Origin: Kordiimonadaceae bacterium
Lineage (GTDB): Bacteria; Pseudomonadota; Alphaproteobacteria; Sphingomonadales; Kordiimonadaceae
DNA length: 64,000 nt
Assembly: GCA_017640725.1 (NCBI GenBank)
Contig: JAEPQB010000001.1
Coordinates: forward strand, 1,922,001-1,986,000
Direction of reading: 5' to 3'
A program made the position numbers and the translations under genes. Positions 21,304 to 28,578 of the stretch are shown one piece after another (the first letter of the stretch is position 1; every line of letters begins with the position of its first letter). Below the pieces are notes generated by a model. The model was not told the origin of the DNA, did not search any database, and worked only from the letters and a program-made list of their open reading frames with translations.

Positions 21304-23952
21304 CTAGGAAATTGCCTCTAAACAGGACCGAACATCCTCAACTCGAACGGGTTTGGTGAGGAAATGATCGATGCCAGATTCGATACTGCGCTCCTTGGCT
21401 TCTTCCATCGCATCCGCGGAAATAGCGATTATTGGCACCCTTACGCCATCCTTTTCCCCTTGCCGGATCGCACTCGCCAATGCAAAGCCATCCATATTTG
21501 GCATGCGTAAATCTGTCAGAACGATGCCATGTTTGCTCGGGTCATACAAAGAGAGTGCATTTTTGCCGTCGTCAGCGGTATCCCATTCATAGCCGAGCGA
21601 CTTAAGAATTTTGCCAATGACCAATTGATTGACCTTATTGTCCTCCACAACCAGGATGCGCGCTTTGTCGCTGTCTGATCTGGCTGGGCTGGCGCCATTT
21701 GTGCCTTGAGTTGCCGCCGCATCGGGTGCCTGATCAAGCATCAGTTCAAAAGAGAAAGTTGACCCTTCATTTTCTTTACTGACGACCGAGATTTCACCGT
21801 CCATCAGGTGAGCGAGGCGCCGGCAAATAGATAGACCAAGCCCGGTGCCGCCATATTGTCGTGCCACAGAACTGTCCGCCTGCTCGAAAGGCTGGAACAG
21901 GCGGCTCAGAGTTTCTGGGTTGATGCCGATGCCTGTGTCCGTGACTGACATGCGCACAAAAAATTGTCCCTGATCACGTTTTTCTGCGCTTGCGCTGATG
22001 GTCACACCGCCCGCTTCAGTGAATTTCAGCGCATTGCTCAGCAGGTTGTACATGATTTGGCGAATTCGGTTCGAATCGCCAACCACATGCCGCGGAAGGC
22101 TGTCATCCAGATCCAAATTCAAAGACAAATGCTTTTGCTGCGCACTCTGTCGAAGCAGATCTGTGGCACCGTTCAAGGTGGCGTGCAGGTCAAACTGGTG
22201 TGGGTTAATTTCAAGTTTGCCAGCTTCAATTTTCGACAGGTCCAGTACATCGTCCAGGATGGTAAGCAAGGTTTCTGCGGACTGATTGATCACTTTAACC
22301 AACTGGTCCTGTTCTTTGTTCAGCTTACTGTCGCCCAGCATTTCTCCAACAGAAATGATGCCGTTCATCGGAGAGCGGATTTCATGGCTCATCATGGCCA
22401 GGAAGTTGGTTTTGGCTTGAGCGGCTGCTTCCGCGCGGCGTCTGGCTTCTTCGAGCGTGTGCTCAACCTGCACCTGCTTTGATGTATCTACAGCAATAAT
22501 TTGGCGCGCATTCTGTCCGTGCCATTCGACTGGGCTACTGGCCATTGAGAACCAGCGTGTATTGCCGCTTCTGCCCTGGATCGCGTGGCGCGCCACGTGC
22601 CGATTTCCTTCAGCGCCGTCACTACTTGTGAGTCTTTTGGGGAACAAGCTTAAAATGGTTTGCTCATTGGCTTGAACTCCGTCATCCGGGTCAAGCCACA
22701 AGTCGGCAAATGCTTCATTGTAGTACAAAATTGTGTCGCCGTCTGCGATGCACATGGCCTGTGGTGACAACCGGACAATAGCATTCATTTGCTCGGCACT
22801 TTCGAGCACCTGAGCCTGTCTTCGGTCAATCTCATCAATGAAATGCTGAACTGCTGCGCTGATTTCGCCGATTTCGTCATCACCAAGCTCTGGCAACGCG
22901 TCAGAACCGCCCGAAGCACGGCTGATAACCGCATGACGCAAGGCTGCAAACCGGGCGAGCATGCGGCGCTCGATATAGAAGAAGCTGAATACGGCAATGG
23001 CAATCGCGAAGAAAACGCTAGCCGCCAAAACAGCAAGCTGTTGCTCACTTTGCTGGGCCATTAAGCCCGCTGTTGCTTGCGCCTGGGTACTGCGTTCGCT
23101 GGCGAGTTGGTCTGTGTTGCGCAACAGCTCCGCCACATTCACGCGCATCTGTCGCTCAAGAGAGTAGGCGCGAACGTTTACCTGGGACCACTCACGAAAC
23201 TTGGTTGATAGACCCGATTCTGAGCTCAGTTGAGCTTGCAATCCTTCTAGTCGGCTTGTCGCGACCTGCTGGTATGGGTCCGGCAATTGTCGGGTCGCAG
23301 CAAATAGGGCCCGCAAGCCGCGCTGAATGGACAGGACTTGACGTTGTTGCACGCTAAAGTCGTTACTGGTTGCCAAAGTCACAACCCTTTCGACCAAAGC
23401 GTGCTCCCGCTCTAGCCATTCCGAGTAGGCCGCATTTTCGGCTGCCACTGGAAGGTTTGCTTCGCCCACAAGGTCAGATACAACCCAGCGACCCAGTTCT
23501 GCGCGTTGAGTTTCCAGCTGAGCAGCCAGGTCAATGCGATTTTCAATCAGCCGATTAAGCTCAGCCGTAATATCAGCAAGAATGGAAAGAACTGTTTGTA
23601 TTTCTTCGTAGTTGCCCAGGACTTCCTTTGATTCGAGCAGCGTTTCAATGGTCGAGAGGGCATTTTGTGTCGAAGTGTAGGCTATACGTCGCTGCGCTTG
23701 CACACGACTAGACACCAGTTGCTCCGCATTTTGAACGACCCTTTCCAGCGAACTGTTGAGTTCAATGGATGATGCGAGTTCGGGCAGTGTTTTTTCAGAA
23801 TATTCGGTTAGCTGGTCGTTGAAGCGTTGTAACGTGAAGAAAGACAGAACAGAGACCGCACCCAACAACAACGTGAAAACAGCAATGACCGCCTTGATTT
23901 TGAATCCAAGGCCGAACCGCTTGCCGCCAATATATTCATTGGGTTGGCTCAT
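21304..23952 (-). CDS. Hybrid sensor histidine kinase/response regulator (TorS/ArcB-like)
   Basis: 882 residues. TM1 about 19-41, a long helical periplasmic domain about 42-304, TM2 about 305-327, HAMP about 328-380, a PAS domain about 385-495, HisKA with H523 (MMSHEIRSPMNG), HATPase with NALKF, DTGIGI and GGTGLGLSI boxes, and a REC domain about 765-880 with D814 (LTDLRMPNMDG). The helical periplasmic region resembles TorS-type sensors that read a bound periplasmic protein. Its start overlaps the stop of the upstream 5'-nucleotidase-like gene by four bases. No Hpt domain or separate output regulator is in the window, so the phosphotransfer partner is elsewhere. Confidence 0.93.
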   Translation of the reverse strand: MSQPNEYIGGKRFGLGFKIKAVIAVFTLLLGAVSVLSFFTLQRFNDQLTEYSEKTLPELASSIELNSSLERVVQNAEQLVSSRVQAQRRIAYTSTQNALSTIETLLESKEVLGNYEEIQTVLSILADITAELNRLIENRIDLAAQLETQRAELGRWVVSDLVGEANLPVAAENAAYSEWLEREHALVERVVTLATSNDFSVQQRQVLSIQRGLRALFAATRQLPDPYQQVATSRLEGLQAQLSSESGLSTKFREWSQVNVRAYSLERQMRVNVAELLRNTDQLASERSTQAQATAGLMAQQSEQQLAVLAASVFFAIAIAVFSFFYIERRMLARFAALRHAVISRASGGSDALPELGDDEIGEISAAVQHFIDEIDRRQAQVLESAEQMNAIVRLSPQAMCIADGDTILYYNEAFADLWLDPDDGVQANEQTILSLFPKRLTSSDGAEGNRHVARHAIQGRSGNTRWFSMASSPVEWHGQNARQIIAVDTSKQVQVEHTLEEARRRAEAAAQAKTNFLAMMSHEIRSPMNGIISVGEMLGDSKLNKEQDQLVKVINQSAETLLTILDDVLDLSKIEAGKLEINPHQFDLHATLNGATDLLRQSAQQKHLSLNLDLDDSLPRHVVGDSNRIRQIMYNLLSNALKFTEAGGVTISASAEKRDQGQFFVRMSVTDTGIGINPETLSRLFQPFEQADSSVARQYGGTGLGLSICRRLAHLMDGEISVVSKENEGSTFSFELMLDQAPDAAATQGTNGASPARSDSDKARILVVEDNKVNQLVIGKILKSLGYEWDTADDGKNALSLYDPSKHGIVLTDLRMPNMDGFALASAIRQGEKDGVRVPIIAISADAMEEAKERSIESGIDHFLTKPVRVEDVRSCLEAIS

Positions 23953-25475
23953 TGTCGGGCCGCTCCTTGTTGGGCGACATCAAGAACCCTACCTTGAGTT
24001 TTTGGCGAAAGCTCCGGCATCTTTTCCACATAACGAACCACCGTGTTCCAGATCAATTGATTGGTGCCTTCATTGGCCAGTTTTTCAGCATCGGCCAAAA
24101 TGGTGAACCCATCATTGCCTTCAGCCATAAAGTCACTGACAGCAACCCGGTACAATTCAGTTTCCTGAAGCGGATTTCCATTAATCATGACAGAAACAAC
24201 ACGGCTGCCTTTTGGCTTGCGGCTATCGTAACGCACCGTCAGATTACTAACATGTACAAAACAACCGTCTTCCCGCAGCCCACAGTCTATACCGTGCTCC
24301 AGCGTTTCGAGAATTGCTGCGCCTGAAAGATTAAGCAGCGCAGACCTGTTGCCAAACGGCAATTCGCGCTGAATGTCACCACGGTTGATTTCGTATCCCG
24401 CCTCATACCGGACATTGCCGCGAATAGAGCCGCCATTCAAAATCATTGCATCCGCGCTCAGATGTTCCCGAAGGGCGTCAGTGACCAGATTGGCAAAACC
24501 ATTTTCCCGCGAACGAATGTTGCTGCGGAACGTGTCAAAACTCTCACTCACGGTGGAAATGCCACGGCCCAGTATTTGTTCAAGACGGGATTGGTAGGTC
24601 TGAATGATCGGGTCGAGAAGCGGTGAGCTCGAGAAAGAACCAATAGGGATTTCCTGAACAGATGTCTTCAGGCTTTCTTGTCCATTTTCTGCCGCTTTCC
24701 AAAAATCAACAGCCAATACAACGCCGTCAAGGGCGCCATTTGTTGCGATGGTACCCTGAGCATCCAACGACTGTGGGTTGCCAAAATTGTGGGTATAAAT
24801 GACAACGTCTACCATGCCGTTTTCGCGAAACTCGCTTAAGTCGTCATAGTCAGTGTCGGCGAGCAACACTATTGCGTCCACGTATTCGTTGCGCAGGCTT
24901 TTTACATTCTCAGCTATTGCTTGCTTCGTATCAACGGTGCTGGCCTGCACAGCACCATACTCTGCCACCGCATTTGCGGAGGTTAGGGCAATCACACCGA
25001 TAGCGAAATTGCCCGCTTCCAGCACAAAATTTGGATAGGTTCCATCAATGGGCAGACCTGCATCTGTGGTTACCATATTGCTGGTCACCATTGGAAAGGT
25101 CGCAGAAAGAGCGTTCAGAATAAAATTGTCATAACCGTAGGAAAACTCTCGCTTGCCCACTGCCATCACATCGGGCGCCATCGCGTTCAAAATGTCGATC
25201 ATGTGCGCGCCGTTATCCATGGCGCCAAATACTGAAGGGCCCAGGGAGGCACCTCCATGAATAAAAAGCGTGTTGGGGTTTTTCGCGCGTTCCTGATCCA
25301 GAAGCTCAGCGAGATGGGACAGGCCGGGCTCGCCTTCTTTTTGCATGATCTCAGGAAAGGAGGAAAAATATAGCACCCGTACTTTGTCTTGAGCGATGGC
25401 GGACGTGCTAAACCAAAGGCAGGCGATTGCCATCGCAGCCTTGCGCACAACTACACTAGTCCACCAACGGCGCAT
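23949..25475 (-). CDS. Exported 5'-nucleotidase-like protein with degenerate metal site (probable nucleotide sensor)
   Basis: 508 residues, signal peptide about 1-28. Overall UshA/5'-nucleotidase architecture: metallophosphatase domain (about 30-280) and 5_nucleotid_C domain (about 305-500). The C-terminal binding domain is intact: ENGFANLVTDA (324-334), NGGSIRG (347-353), PFGN. In the catalytic domain the first metal segment reads YFSSF instead of DxH, the second HGGAS instead of AGD, and the GNHEFD box is GKREFS (107-112); the LSH histidine is Asp and only one His of the GHxH pair remains. Catalysis is therefore unlikely. Overlap with the hybrid kinase gene suggests it binds a nucleotide and reports to the kinase. 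Start ATG has GGAGAAGC upstream. Confidence 0.88.
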   Translation of the reverse strand: MRRWWTSVVVRKAAMAIACLWFSTSAIAQDKVRVLYFSSFPEIMQKEGEPGLSHLAELLDQERAKNPNTLFIHGGASLGPSVFGAMDNGAHMIDILNAMAPDVMAVGKREFSYGYDNFILNALSATFPMVTSNMVTTDAGLPIDGTYPNFVLEAGNFAIGVIALTSANAVAEYGAVQASTVDTKQAIAENVKSLRNEYVDAIVLLADTDYDDLSEFRENGMVDVVIYTHNFGNPQSLDAQGTIATNGALDGVVLAVDFWKAAENGQESLKTSVQEIPIGSFSSSPLLDPIIQTYQSRLEQILGRGISTVSESFDTFRSNIRSRENGFANLVTDALREHLSADAMILNGGSIRGNVRYEAGYEINRGDIQRELPFGNRSALLNLSGAAILETLEHGIDCGLREDGCFVHVSNLTVRYDSRKPKGSRVVSVMINGNPLQETELYRVAVSDFMAEGNDGFTILADAEKLANEGTNQLIWNTVVRYVEKMPELSPKTQGRVLDVAQQGAARQ

Positions 25476-25682
25476 TCGCTTCTCCAGACCCCTTCACACT
25501 CTTATGCCGATCAGAGTTAAGCAATGTTTAATTTTAATGGCTGCTTCAACAATATATTGCCCTTGCCAGCCAATAGATTGAACCTCATTCGGCACCGCAC
25601 GCTGGGTATCTGTCCCAAGACGCTGGCTATGTGGCCTTGCTCGCGCAATTTACAATACATGCAAAGCGACACGAGGACCTCC

Positions 25683-26183
25683 ATGAAACAGAAAATATTC
25701 AGCACTTTTTCGGCTTTTTTTGTGGCTCTGGCGCTGAACCAAATGGCGCCAGTGGCTGCCACAGATACTGTGCCCCAAAGGGTTGCAGACTGGGTCGATG
25801 CCTATCAGGATTTTGACCTAAACCGTTTTCTCAATTTTTACGCAGACAATGTGTCTTTTAAAGACCCTACTGCGGGCATTGATTTCCCGAACAAGCAAGC
25901 GCTGGCGGATGCTTATTCCGCGATCATGCAAGGCAGGTGGGGCGGTGACTTCCGCATGGATATCAATTCGGTGGTCGAAAGCGACGATACGGTTGTGATG
26001 GAAGGTATTTTTTCCCTGTCATTCAACGGCGAAGTGGCAAAAATGAATTTCACCACATGGCTTGATTTTGAGGACGGTTTGATCGTACGGCAGCTCGATC
26101 TTTTCAATTATGCCGCCTTGCGCCGACAAATTCCAACCTATGGGCAAGGGCTCCCTGCAGAATATACCGGACCAAGGGATTAG
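25683..26183 (+). CDS. Exported NTF2-like (SnoaL-type) protein
   Basis: 166 residues with a signal peptide (cleavage near residue 26, APVAAT). The mature part has the NTF2-like cone: helix VADWVDAYQDFDLNRFLNFYADN then KDPTAGI, with long C-terminal strands. Ligand or reaction unknown; relatives include small isomerases and binding proteins. ATG at 25683 follows GAGGACCTCC. Upstream 25476-25682 carries no gene and probably holds divergent promoters for this gene and the nucleotidase-like/kinase operon; none is clear. Confidence 0.7.
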   Translation: MKQKIFSTFSAFFVALALNQMAPVAATDTVPQRVADWVDAYQDFDLNRFLNFYADNVSFKDPTAGIDFPNKQALADAYSAIMQGRWGGDFRMDINSVVESDDTVVMEGIFSLSFNGEVAKMNFTTWLDFEDGLIVRQLDLFNYAALRRQIPTYGQGLPAEYTGPRD

Positions 26184-26260: not shown

Positions 26261-27136
26261 TCAGCAGGTTTCTGATGCCGGTTCAAGCAAGTGAGATGCA
26301 AGCCCGCTCCAGTCCACAGGGCAATCGATTGCAAGTAAACTGTTTTCCATATGGGTTTGGACCGCCTTGGTCAGATACAAGCCGTTTGCGGCCGGAGCCA
26401 TGGATTGGAAGTAGTTCAAGTCTTTCTGGGCGAGTTCCAAGTCAAACAATGCGGGTGTGAATTTACGGTCTGCAATCGCGCCAGAAAATAATTGAATAAC
26501 TGGGCTGTCGAGAGGGCTGTTTTTTATTGTTTGCTGAAGGGCGGCTTCTCCGCCGTCAAAGTTCGACATTGCATGTGCGGCTTCTGTTAAGCTCGCAATC
26601 TGACAAGCAACCAGATAGTTAATCGCCAGCTTCGCGGCTGCTGCCATTCTTGGATCTGGCCCCAACTTATGTGCAACGTTTCCAATCGACTCTAAAACCG
26701 GCTTGATCAGGTCAATGCTTTTTGTGTCGCCTGCTAGAAGGAAAGAGGCCTGTCCGGCTTCAACAACATCCGGCCGGCCAAGAACCGGGGCATTCACAAA
26801 AGCAACTCCCATTTTATGGTGTAAATCAGAGAGGGCCGACACCTGATCAGGTGAGCATGTGGCAAATGATACATGAATTGTGGGGCGTATCTGGGATTGC
26901 GTCATGCGATCAGTCAATGCTTTCAGCGCTGCATCGTCGGCAACGCAGGAAAACAGCCAATCTACCGATTGGCAAAGCTCTTCAAATGAGCTCATAGTTT
27001 CGACGCTTTCCAGTCCAATATCTTTGTTTGTTCGATTCCAAACTGCACGCAATCGGCATGCTGCGTCCAGCTTCTGCGCTAGTGCAGTGCCCAGTTGCCC
27101 CAAGCCAGCGAAACCGATTTTTGGTGTTGAAGTCAT
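26261..27136 (-). CDS. NAD(P)-dependent dehydrogenase, 3-hydroxyisobutyrate dehydrogenase-like
   Basis: 291 residues. Rossmann domain with GFAGLGQLGTALA; a WLFSCVADDAALK segment; FVNAPVLGRPDV in place of the family DAPVSGG; and a C-terminal all-alpha domain with AKLAINYLV where the catalytic Lys lies (K near residue 175, AAAKLAIN). It belongs to the beta-hydroxyacid dehydrogenase/imine reductase superfamily. Substrate unknown. It overlaps the NTF2-like gene upstream by four bases (ATGA). Divergent LysR regulator lies beyond that gene. Confidence 0.82.
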   Translation of the reverse strand: MTSTPKIGFAGLGQLGTALAQKLDAACRLRAVWNRTNKDIGLESVETMSSFEELCQSVDWLFSCVADDAALKALTDRMTQSQIRPTIHVSFATCSPDQVSALSDLHHKMGVAFVNAPVLGRPDVVEAGQASFLLAGDTKSIDLIKPVLESIGNVAHKLGPDPRMAAAAKLAINYLVACQIASLTEAAHAMSNFDGGEAALQQTIKNSPLDSPVIQLFSGAIADRKFTPALFDLELAQKDLNYFQSMAPAANGLYLTKAVQTHMENSLLAIDCPVDWSGLASHLLEPASETC

Positions 27137-27570
27137 GATTGCGGTCCAAACATGTGTTGCAGGTCTTCTTCGGGGATATGCCCTCCCTCCAACAGGCGGG
27201 TAAGCTTGTCATAGATGCGCCACTCACCATTCACTTTGTACAAACCCAGCTGATCATAGAAACGATTGTTGTTCTTCATCTCCACAGTGGCGACACGCCC
27301 TTCGTTGATGGAAATGTGGGTGATTTCAACGTCGTGAACATCGGCATCGGGTAACTGGCTCCAGATCTTGTCCCACACATCCTCTATCGGCAGCACATAC
27401 ACTTTTTCTGCACCGGTGCCGCCGGTGATGAGTTTCATTTGCGCTTTGGGGGCGTCATAGGCTTTCGAAATTTGCCCCCAGTTTTTAGTCGCGACACCAA
27501 ACGCATAGTTCAGGGCTGCTTGTGAAACCGCCAAGAAGTCTTGTTGGTTGCTTTTAGTTTGAATTTTCAT
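27133..27570 (-). CDS. Putative lumazine-binding/NTF2-like protein
   Basis: 145-residue cytoplasmic protein (no signal peptide). Pattern of one long helix pair and curved sheet ending VNGEWRIYDKLT, the typical NTF2-like hairpin close, near PF12893. Possibly a small ligand carrier or isomerase that works with the overlapping dehydrogenase. ATG preceded by AAGGTCAGC. First gene of a two-gene unit divergent from LysR with an inverted repeat between them. Confidence 0.72.
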   Translation of the reverse strand: MKIQTKSNQQDFLAVSQAALNYAFGVATKNWGQISKAYDAPKAQMKLITGGTGAEKVYVLPIEDVWDKIWSQLPDADVHDVEITHISINEGRVATVEMKNNNRFYDQLGLYKVNGEWRIYDKLTRLLEGGHIPEEDLQHMFGPQS

Positions 27571-27637
27571 GTGCTGACCTTTCTCTGAGACGAATGCAGG
27601 GTGACAAGGAAACGCAGCATTTGGCAGTCCAATCAGG

Positions 27638-27671
27638 ACGTTGGGTTTTTCAGTATTGAAAAACCCAACGT
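27638..27671. promoter_or_regulatory. 15-base perfect inverted repeat in LysR divergent region, operator candidate
   Basis: Left arm at 27638-27652 and right arm at 27657-27671 are exact reverse complements (TTGGGTTTTTCA core) separated by GTAT. It lies 34 bases before the lysR ATG and about 70 before the divergent operon. A LysR-type T-N11-A site could be embedded; it would also fold as a hairpin in RNA. No trailing T run, so operator is preferred. Confidence 0.6.
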
Positions 27672-27705
27672 GGTCAATGGCATCTCATCGCCTTATGTTG
27701 TTCCT

Positions 27706-28578
27706 ATGCAGAATTGGGATTTGATACGGGTTTTTCTGGCGGTGTCAGAGCGCGGCAGCTTGCTTGGGGCGTCCGGTCAGCTTGGCATGAGCCCGCCGAC
27801 CATCGCGCGGCACCTGACACGCCTTGAAGACGAGTTGGGATTGACCTTGTTCATTCGACGTCATGATGGATACCGGCTGACGCGTGAGGGCCACCAGTTG
27901 TTGCCGAAGGCACGACAGGTCGCCAGGTCTGTGGGCATCTTCTCGCGGACGGCAACTGACGCCAAAAACCCCGAGAGGACGCGGGTTCGATTGGCATCAG
28001 GTTTCTGGTTTTCAAGGCTTATCACTGCTGAGCTTTCATCGTTTCATGCCAACAACCCGGGTATCGAACTGGACCTAGTCACCGGTCATGAGATTGCCGA
28101 CCTCAGCGACGGGGAAGCGGATATCTCAATCAGGAATATTCGGCCTGAAAACGGTGCATTGGTGATGAGAAAACTGGGCGAAACTCTTTATGCAATCTAC
28201 GGCTCTAAATCCTATGTGGCTCGAAACCCAGCAGCACGTGAAGAAGAGCGATTTCAAAGCTGCGATTGGATTGGTGCGGCTGAGCCTTTGGCTTCTTTGG
28301 CTTCGCAGGTTTGGCTTCAGGAAAAAGGGGTGAGAAACCCCAAACTGCGCTGCTCGCATACGCCGCAATTTCTGGATGCGGCAATCGCCGGTGTGGGGCT
28401 TGCGATCCTGCCGCGGATCATTGGGGACAAGGAAGAGAGCCTCGTTCGTGTGTCAGAATCCATTGAGCTTACATCGAAAGAAGTTTGGCTGATTGTTCAT
28501 GAGCGGTCCCGAGACGTTCCGGAGATACGCACGGTGATCAATTGGCTGGTTCCTCTGTTCAAACAGATTTCAGACTAG
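27706..28578 (+). CDS. LysR family transcriptional regulator
   Basis: 290 residues. N-terminal winged HTH (residues 1-60): NWDLIRVFLAVSERGSLLGAS, then MSPPTIARHLTRLEDELG. The remainder is a type 2 periplasmic-binding-like effector domain. The ATG at 27706 starts the HTH as in family members; the in-frame GTG at 27601 would translate through the inverted repeat and is rejected. Divergent from the NTF2-like/dehydrogenase operon and upstream of an M14-like deacylase gene, either of which could be its target. Confidence 0.9.
   Translation: MQNWDLIRVFLAVSERGSLLGASGQLGMSPPTIARHLTRLEDELGLTLFIRRHDGYRLTREGHQLLPKARQVARSVGIFSRTATDAKNPERTRVRLASGFWFSRLITAELSSFHANNPGIELDLVTGHEIADLSDGEADISIRNIRPENGALVMRKLGETLYAIYGSKSYVARNPAAREEERFQSCDWIGAAEPLASLASQVWLQEKGVRNPKLRCSHTPQFLDAAIAGVGLAILPRIIGDKEESLVRVSESIELTSKEVWLIVHERSRDVPEIRTVINWLVPLFKQISD

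What the first reader, a model, noticed from the sequence alone, without database searches (positions are those of the whole stretch)
21304..25475. Dead 5'-nucleotidase coupled to a hybrid histidine kinase: a possible nucleotide-sensing system
The exported protein at 23949-25475 keeps the nucleotide-binding C-terminal domain (ENGFANLV, NGGSIRG, PFGN) while nearly every metal ligand of the catalytic domain is changed (GNHEFD box reads GKREFS; DxH and AGD segments lost). Its stop overlaps the start of a hybrid kinase whose long helical periplasmic region resembles TorS-like sensors that read a binding protein. Seen: motif losses and ATGA overlap. Inferred: the protein binds a nucleotide or nucleoside and reports to the kinase. 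I know of no named system with this pairing.
Basis: partly seen in the sequence, partly recalled or inferred. Interest (0 to 1): 0.78.

Follow-up and report, generated by a model that had tools for sequence, protein, structure and literature searches.

The report
Dead nucleotidase as sensor-kinase co-receptor
A secreted protein descended from a nucleotide-cutting enzyme has lost its cutting site but kept its nucleotide-gripping pocket, and is encoded directly beside a membrane sensor in distantly related bacteria, which suggests bacteria turned a digestive enzyme into an antenna for nucleotides or nucleosides outside the inner membrane.

Summary
The exported 508-aa protein (23949-25475, -) has a 5_nucleotid_C domain, has lost most metal and catalytic residues (NHEFD reads KREFS), and its stop overlaps (ATGA) the start of an 882-aa hybrid kinase. 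It is no local accident. In 18 of 18 orthologues found in 58 relatives a hybrid kinase follows directly; strong matches to the kinase's periplasmic domain occur in those 18 genomes and none of the other 40. Other pseudo-nucleotidases precede the same sensor domain on kinases in Azospirillum (13 of 13 records) and on GGDEF proteins in a family of another class (23 of 23). No sensor match lies beside 79 loci of NHE-type homologues. The pseudo-enzymes form one clade; their inferred nucleotide-contact residues are nearly invariant. The sensor is at most remotely TorS-like. Best reading: a periplasmic co-receptor of single origin for a nucleotide-like ligand, plugged into swapped outputs. Ligand, binding and signalling are inferred; both structure models failed.

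The parts
23949..25475 (-). pseudo-5'-nucleotidase gene (508 aa, exported)
25389..25475 (-). probable signal peptide, residues 1-29; read from the sequence, no predictor run
   Evidence: hydropathy maximum at residue 9 (1.36, no window above 1.6)
25143..25154 (-). K108-R109-E110-F111, in place of the catalytic NHEF box
   Evidence: K in 41 of 44 (N in 3) and R or K in 44 of 44 pseudo rows; N and H in 56 of 56 other rows
24093..24530 (-). 5_nucleotid_C domain (residues 316-461) with contact positions R317, R321, R352, F374, F449, D455
21304..23952 (-). hybrid histidine kinase gene (882 aa); ATGA overlap at 23949-23952
23047..23826 (-). periplasmic helical sensor region, about residues 43-302, between two TM segments
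   Evidence: hydropathy; family alignment A5; TorS comparison
22828..22968 (-). HAMP domain
   Evidence: below Pfam cut-off, E 0.0005
22480..22788 (-). PAS domain
   Evidence: below cut-off, E 0.0011 and 0.011
22219..22416 (-). HisKA domain with H523
21733..22080 (-). HATPase_c domain
21325..21657 (-). receiver domain with D814

Best explanation
The exported protein is a pseudo-enzyme of the UshA/CD73 nucleotidase family that works as a periplasmic ligand-binding co-receptor. Shown: catalytic and metal residues are replaced while the nucleotide-contact residues of the C-terminal domain are kept; the gene sits directly before a membrane protein with a dedicated helical periplasmic domain; that domain is attached to hybrid kinases, PAS kinases or GGDEF domains in different lineages. 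Inferred: it binds a nucleotide or nucleoside without hydrolysing it (the conserved K-R pair may stand in for the metal charge next to the phosphates); it docks on the helical domain as TorT does on TorS; binding or release shifts the sensor helices and HAMP and changes kinase activity (window: H523 to D814, then an unidentified Hpt and regulator) or c-di-GMP synthesis in the GGDEF lineage.
For: Adjacency, same strand: 18 of 18 orthologues in 58 relatives, with tblastn matches to kinase core and receiver; 23 of 23 in 118 genomes of family f195, GGDEF by Pfam in 4 and by motif in 19; 1 of 1 in G108; 13 of 13 pseudo-type Azospirillum records. Co-occurrence: strong sensor matches in the same 18 genomes and 0 of 40 others, in the same 23 and 0 of 95 others, and one match in the own genome. 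Control: no sensor match in 94 locus records, 79 loci after removing 15 fetched twice, of NHE-type homologues. Sites: R379, R410, D504 kept in 44 of 44, F429 and F498 F or Y in 44 of 44; mean conservation of six contact sites 0.97 (F, Y, W pooled) against 0.52 for residues 301-500, 0 of 100,000 random draws as high. One clade, SH-aLRT 100. dN/dS about 0.1 in the two of five pairs where dS could be estimated. Remote TorS similarity of the sensor.
Against: No binding, activity or signalling data. Both AlphaFold models are poor (pLDDT 46.6 and 49.0), so pocket and docking are untested. The contact residues are as common in NHE-type homologues, so they show a kept pocket, not a known ligand; R375 is kept in 37 of 44 and N431 in 20 of 44. 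D41 is kept in 15, D84 in 5, N116 in 3 and H252 in 12 of 44 pseudo rows. The former metal and catalytic positions are not freely drifting: mean conservation 0.63 against 0.47 for residues 30-300 (4% of random draws as high), which fits a new role but also altered chemistry. The sensor profile was seeded with adjacent genes (15 of the 18 relatives, 7 of the 23 of f195, G108), so only the rest are independent on the presence side. In L114 the downstream GGDEF protein had no sensor match by blastp. TorS similarity is weak and depends on which sensors are used. No Hpt was found in the window kinase and its response regulator was not searched for. Five of 18 same-genus relatives lack the pair, three of them at least 96% complete.
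Confidence: 0.66

Rival explanations
1. The pseudo-nucleotidase is a co-receptor or structural partner of the sensor but reports something other than a nucleotide (a peptide, envelope or redox state, another protein).
For: The ligand is unknown; C398 and C405 are invariant in the 19 own-order members and absent from UshA and the paralogue; N431 is not conserved.
Against: Six nucleotide-contact positions average 0.97 conservation across two classes, hard to explain without selection on that pocket; the Cys pair is absent from the five members of other lineages aligned (other Azospirillum and f195 rows not inspected for it).
Confidence: 0.17
2. The protein still has enzyme activity (metal-poor or altered chemistry) and the sensor reads its product or its turnover.
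For: Some pseudo rows keep D41 (15 of 44), D84 (5 of 44) or H252 (12 of 44), and the former active-site positions are somewhat more conserved than their surroundings.
Against: The catalytic His is R or K in 44 of 44 and the metal-bridging Asp is lost in 39 of 44; Pfam sees no metallophosphatase domain in the window protein.
Confidence: 0.08
3. The two genes are only co-transcribed; the proteins do not touch and the kinase senses its ligand directly.
For: No physical evidence of a complex; several helical sensors bind ligands directly (NarX and others, passages in PMC8534201).
Against: The partnership survives replacement of the output domain and two classes of divergence with no separated case among the pseudo-type loci examined, and strong sensor matches and pseudo-enzyme are present or absent together.
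Confidence: 0.06

Closest known systems
TorT-TorS (TMAO sensing, E. coli)
   Same: A periplasmic protein encoded beside a hybrid kinase with a long all-helical periplasmic domain; remote similarity of that domain (89.4%, 241 columns).
   Different: TorT is annotated a periplasmic TMAO-binding protein (its periplasmic-binding-protein fold is recalled), not a nucleotidase, and torT is transcribed away from torS; the window kinase is far below the TorS cut-off and has no Hpt hit.
LuxP-LuxQ (AI-2 quorum sensing)
   Same: Periplasmic partner carries the ligand to a kinase (passage in PMC8534201).
   Different: LuxQ has tandem PDC domains as sensor (same passage) and LuxP a sugar-binding-protein fold (recalled).
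NspS-MbaA (polyamine sensing by a GGDEF-EAL protein, Vibrio; recalled, no call)
   Same: Periplasmic binding protein controls a c-di-GMP enzyme, as proposed for the GGDEF lineage.
   Different: Solute-binding-protein fold, not a nucleotidase (recalled).
UshA / CD73 / bacterial 5'-nucleotidases
   Same: Same two-domain family by sequence and the same contact residues.
   Different: Catalytic dyad and most metal ligands lost; separate clade.

Membership tests
UshA/CD73-type 5'-nucleotidase (enzyme) | 5_nucleotid_C domain over the curated cut-off | tested here: met
   113.2 bits against 23.6
UshA/CD73-type 5'-nucleotidase (enzyme) | metallophosphatase domain with metal ligands D41, H43, D84, N116, H217, H252, Q254 (recalled) | tested here: not met
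   first five read S, P, A, K, D in the window; H252 alignment-dependent; no Q at 254
UshA/CD73-type 5'-nucleotidase (enzyme) | catalytic dyad H117-D120 (recalled) | tested here: not met
   R and S; R or K at the His in 44 of 44 pseudo rows
UshA/CD73-type 5'-nucleotidase (enzyme) | hydrolysis of nucleotides | not testable with these tools
   needs a biochemical assay
TorS (TIGR02956) | score over the curated cut-off of 676.5 bits | tested here: not met
   402.9 bits, best stretch 501-879 (kinase core); 76 of 185 genomes give kinase hits at E <= 1e-100, none over cut-off, so such scores are generic
TorS (TIGR02956) | TorS-type helical periplasmic domain | tested here: inconclusive
TorS (TIGR02956) | adjacent TorT/TMAO partner | tested here: not met
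   the partner is a nucleotidase homologue
Periplasmic-partner sensor system (TorT-TorS and LuxP-LuxQ kind) | exported partner encoded with the membrane sensor | tested here: met
Periplasmic-partner sensor system (TorT-TorS and LuxP-LuxQ kind) | partner binds ligand and contacts the sensor | not testable with these tools
   structure models too poor

The most novel reading that the evidence does not exclude
Bacteria have converted a secreted 5'-nucleotidase, the family of human CD73, into a non-hydrolysing receptor for extracytoplasmic nucleotides or nucleosides. The conversion happened once and the receptor-sensor unit was then carried across classes and re-plugged into phosphorelays or c-di-GMP synthesis: a bacterial counterpart of purinergic sensing built from a dead enzyme.
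Probability: 0.45. Interest if true: 0.85.

Novelty: new variant of a known kind. Interest (0 to 1): 0.71.

Why it matters
Two reviews of which I searched the main text and saw passages, on kinase sensing (PMC8534201) and c-di-GMP sensing (PMC8846402), hold no word beginning with 'nucleotidase'. A pseudo-enzyme co-receptor of that fold would widen periplasmic-partner sensing, give a candidate for how some bacteria notice dissolved nucleotides or nucleosides, and show one input module moved between phosphorelay and c-di-GMP outputs. It makes the question testable in Azospirillum brasilense Sp7, which carries the pair (L321). It also flags an annotation trap: such proteins are labelled 5'-nucleotidase C-terminal domain proteins with 'nucleotide catabolic process'.

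Tried and rejected
Sequence route to TorS: PDB profile search, Pfam on 24 sensors and hhalign against single sequences of TorS, NarX and Tsr were negative, or HAMP-driven (Tsr, 84%); the TorS family search gave only generic kinases; a profile of 7 TorS or TorS-like sensors then gave remote similarity. Rotations of that profile scored 11.9-82%, because the matching segment often stayed intact; they do not serve as a null.

Upstream genes in the GGDEF lineage were scanned in 8 of the 19 loci: tRNA ligase, DNA polymerase III and other unrelated proteins, no hint of ligand. Six other genes reached by the sensor profile in G108, G1210 and G1158 were scanned: two hybrid kinases and four chemoreceptors; TorS_sensor_domain was hit in three (two over its cut-off), but in the two chemoreceptors the segment differs from the one the sensor profile matched, so this is weak support. 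Considered and rejected: pseudogene (dN/dS about 0.1 in two pairs, intact in the window); local oddity; co-occurrence made only by the seeds (the absence side is independent).

Papers: listings only, apart from passages of PMC8846402 and PMC8534201 and PMC6755745, where UshA is a pilus usher and unrelated. Not classified: rows without a locus (three of G370, one of G108 on C1, G506, two of G437, one of G250); 42 of the 61 plasmid records; second places in 8 of the 16 Azospirillum records.
Full report
What is in the window. On the minus strand, a 508-aa exported protein (23949-25475) is followed by an 882-aa hybrid histidine kinase (21304-23952); stop and start share ATGA. The first protein has the 5'-nucleotidase C-terminal domain (Pfam E 1.6e-32; no metallophosphatase hit at E 0.1) and aligns over most of its length with solved nucleotidases such as 3ivd and CD73. 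The second has two membrane segments around a periplasmic stretch of about 260 residues, then HAMP and PAS (both below Pfam cut-off), HisKA, HATPase and a receiver. A same-genus relative (G016) lies on a contig of the same length as that of Kordiimonas laminariae L033, so the window is probably Kordiimonas (inference).

The enzyme is dead by sequence. Against E. coli UshA (roles and numbering recalled) the window reads S39, P41, A76, K108, R109, S112 and D207 where D41, H43, D84, N116, H117, D120 and H217 should be; the letter at H252 depends on the alignment. In 44 pseudo-type proteins N116 is K in 41 and N in 3, and H117 is R in 41 and K in 3; in 56 other homologues they are N and H in all. 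At the positions recalled as nucleotide contacts, R379, R410 and D504 are kept in 44 of 44, F429 and F498 are F or Y in 44 of 44, R375 is kept in 37 of 44. These six average 0.97 conservation (F, Y, W pooled) against 0.52 for residues 301-500; 0 of 100,000 random draws was as high. The eight former metal and catalytic positions average 0.63 against 0.47 for residues 30-300 (4% of draws as high): they changed, but K108, R109, P41 and S112 are themselves conserved. So the catalytic residues went and the binding pocket stayed.

The pairing is ancient. Of 58 relatives searched besides the own genome, 18 have an orthologue at 31-61% identity, and in 18 of 18 the next long gene on the same strand is a kinase with receiver, 9 of them overlapping by mechanical ORF calls (in L035 the kinase is cut by a frame break). 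Profile searches of class and phylum samples (385 and 398 genomes) found, among the 56 loci classified, pseudo-types outside the own order only in G108 of the class and in G742, G747, G450 and G677 of another class. The genomes whose rows had no locus were searched again (32 genomes); the loci returned added no K/N-R box beyond G108 itself, though three are fragments without the box region or with it cut. In the other class the trait is rare: 2 of 369 genomes drawn evenly. In the family of G742, 23 of 118 genomes have one, and in 23 of 23 the next gene on the same strand carries GGDEF: Pfam in 4, motif in 19. Of 61 plasmid records matched I fetched 19. Of the 16 from Azospirillum, best place each, 13 are pseudo-type and 13 of 13 have the sensor next to it (one, L319, with its pseudo-nucleotidase in pieces); the 3 with an NHEF box have none. 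Strains repeat: A. brasilense Sp7, Cd and MTCC4038 are near-copies. Kinase domains were scanned in two: hybrid with Hpt in L195, PAS-HATPase in L198. In strain Cd a REC-HisKA-HATPase protein follows.

The sensor is shared and dedicated. A profile of 24 periplasmic parts (A5) gives one match in the own genome, this kinase. It matches strongly (E 1e-112 or better) in the same 18 relatives; in the other 40 the best match is about 4e-8. In the f195 family it matches at E 3e-40 or better in the same 23 genomes; in the other 95 the best is 1e-12. G108 also has two more moderate matches (E about 1e-37) without the pseudo-enzyme found beside them, so related sensors with other partners exist. The profile was seeded from adjacent genes, so presence in seeds is circular; absence is not. 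Among 94 locus records of NHE-type homologues, 79 after removing 15 fetched twice, 0 hold a sensor match at E 1e-5; flanks are 1.5 to 6 kb, less at contig ends, and some loci are near-copies, such as L070 and L196. L233, L243, L247 and L259 (odd box or fragments) were left out of that count and show no sensor either.

One origin. In a tree of 44 pseudo and 56 other proteins the pseudo set is one side of a branch with SH-aLRT 100 (quick method, box columns not removed; L046 and repeated Azospirillum strains left out; the program warned of long branches for UshA and the paralogue and of uneven composition in 26 rows). The GGDEF-linked proteins form one group within it (100). Selection: dN 0.05 and 0.19 against dS 0.50 and 1.82 in the two of five pairs where dS could be estimated.

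Is the sensor TorS-like? Membership fails: 402.9 bits against a cut-off of 676.5, best stretch in the kinase core, a score that generic hybrid kinases reach. TorS_sensor_domain is not among the 25 Pfam families listed for the A5 sensors. Profile comparison with 7 TorS or TorS-like sensors (3 annotated torS) gives 89.4% and E 2.1e-6 over 241 periplasmic columns, against at most 1% for 30 column shuffles and 0.2-0.3% for reversed profiles; split, the alpha sensors give 37.5% and the GGDEF-lineage ones 84.6%, while the two halves match each other at 99.7%. I take it as probable remote homology. In TorS the domain is two stacked four-helix bundles, with TorT and TMAO listed as its signal (passages in PMC8534201).

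How it most likely works. Ligand enters the periplasm; the pseudo-enzyme closes on it without cutting; K108-R109 may replace the metal charge; the complex docks on the helical domain and changes its state, hence kinase or cyclase output. Everything after 'pocket residues kept' and 'encoded together' is inference. Some own-order kinases carry an Hpt domain (L043, L046); none was found in the window's, so its relay partner is unknown.

Known or new. Ten full-text searches of the held open library found no description of this pairing; two of them used a spelling that may miss 5'-nucleotidase, most hits were seen as listings only, and subscription papers and preprints are not held. Systems where a periplasmic protein serves a membrane sensor are known (TorT-TorS, LuxP-LuxQ; NspS-MbaA recalled); I know of none whose partner is a nucleotidase fold. 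Hence new variant of a known kind.

Noticed in passing
window 25524-26183 (+): A SnoaL-like ORF, apparently exported, diverges from the pseudo-nucleotidase; a related ORF lies upstream on the opposite strand in L034, L036 and L038 too, so it may be a regulatory target.
   Followed up: partly
G000:C6:1171563-1173032 (L052): The own genome also has a nucleotidase paralogue with an NHEF box (22% identical), useful as an active control; its neighbours were only screened with window proteins.
   Followed up: partly
window 27133-28578: A lumazine-binding-like protein, an NAD-binding-like protein (26261-27136) and a LysR-like regulator keep their order in five same-genus loci (L034, L035, L036, L038, L041).
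   Followed up: no
L310 (G108:C3:480000-494000): Two chemoreceptors with TorS_sensor_domain hits lie on either side of a DctP solute-binding-protein gene, which may mean TorS-type domains reading a TRAP binding protein.
   Followed up: partly
L308:3734-8469: In G108 a distant sensor relative (hybrid kinase with Hpt) follows a 339-aa same-strand ORF without Pfam hit, possibly another periplasmic partner; a minus-strand ORF overlaps it.
   Followed up: partly
L233 (G370:C21): Nucleotidase with a GHSEF box next to an NHEF copy: another change of the catalytic dyad, without the sensor.
   Followed up: no
L319:3971-5509: In Azospirillum thermophilum the pseudo-nucleotidase is annotated in three pieces before an apparently intact PAS kinase.
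   Followed up: no
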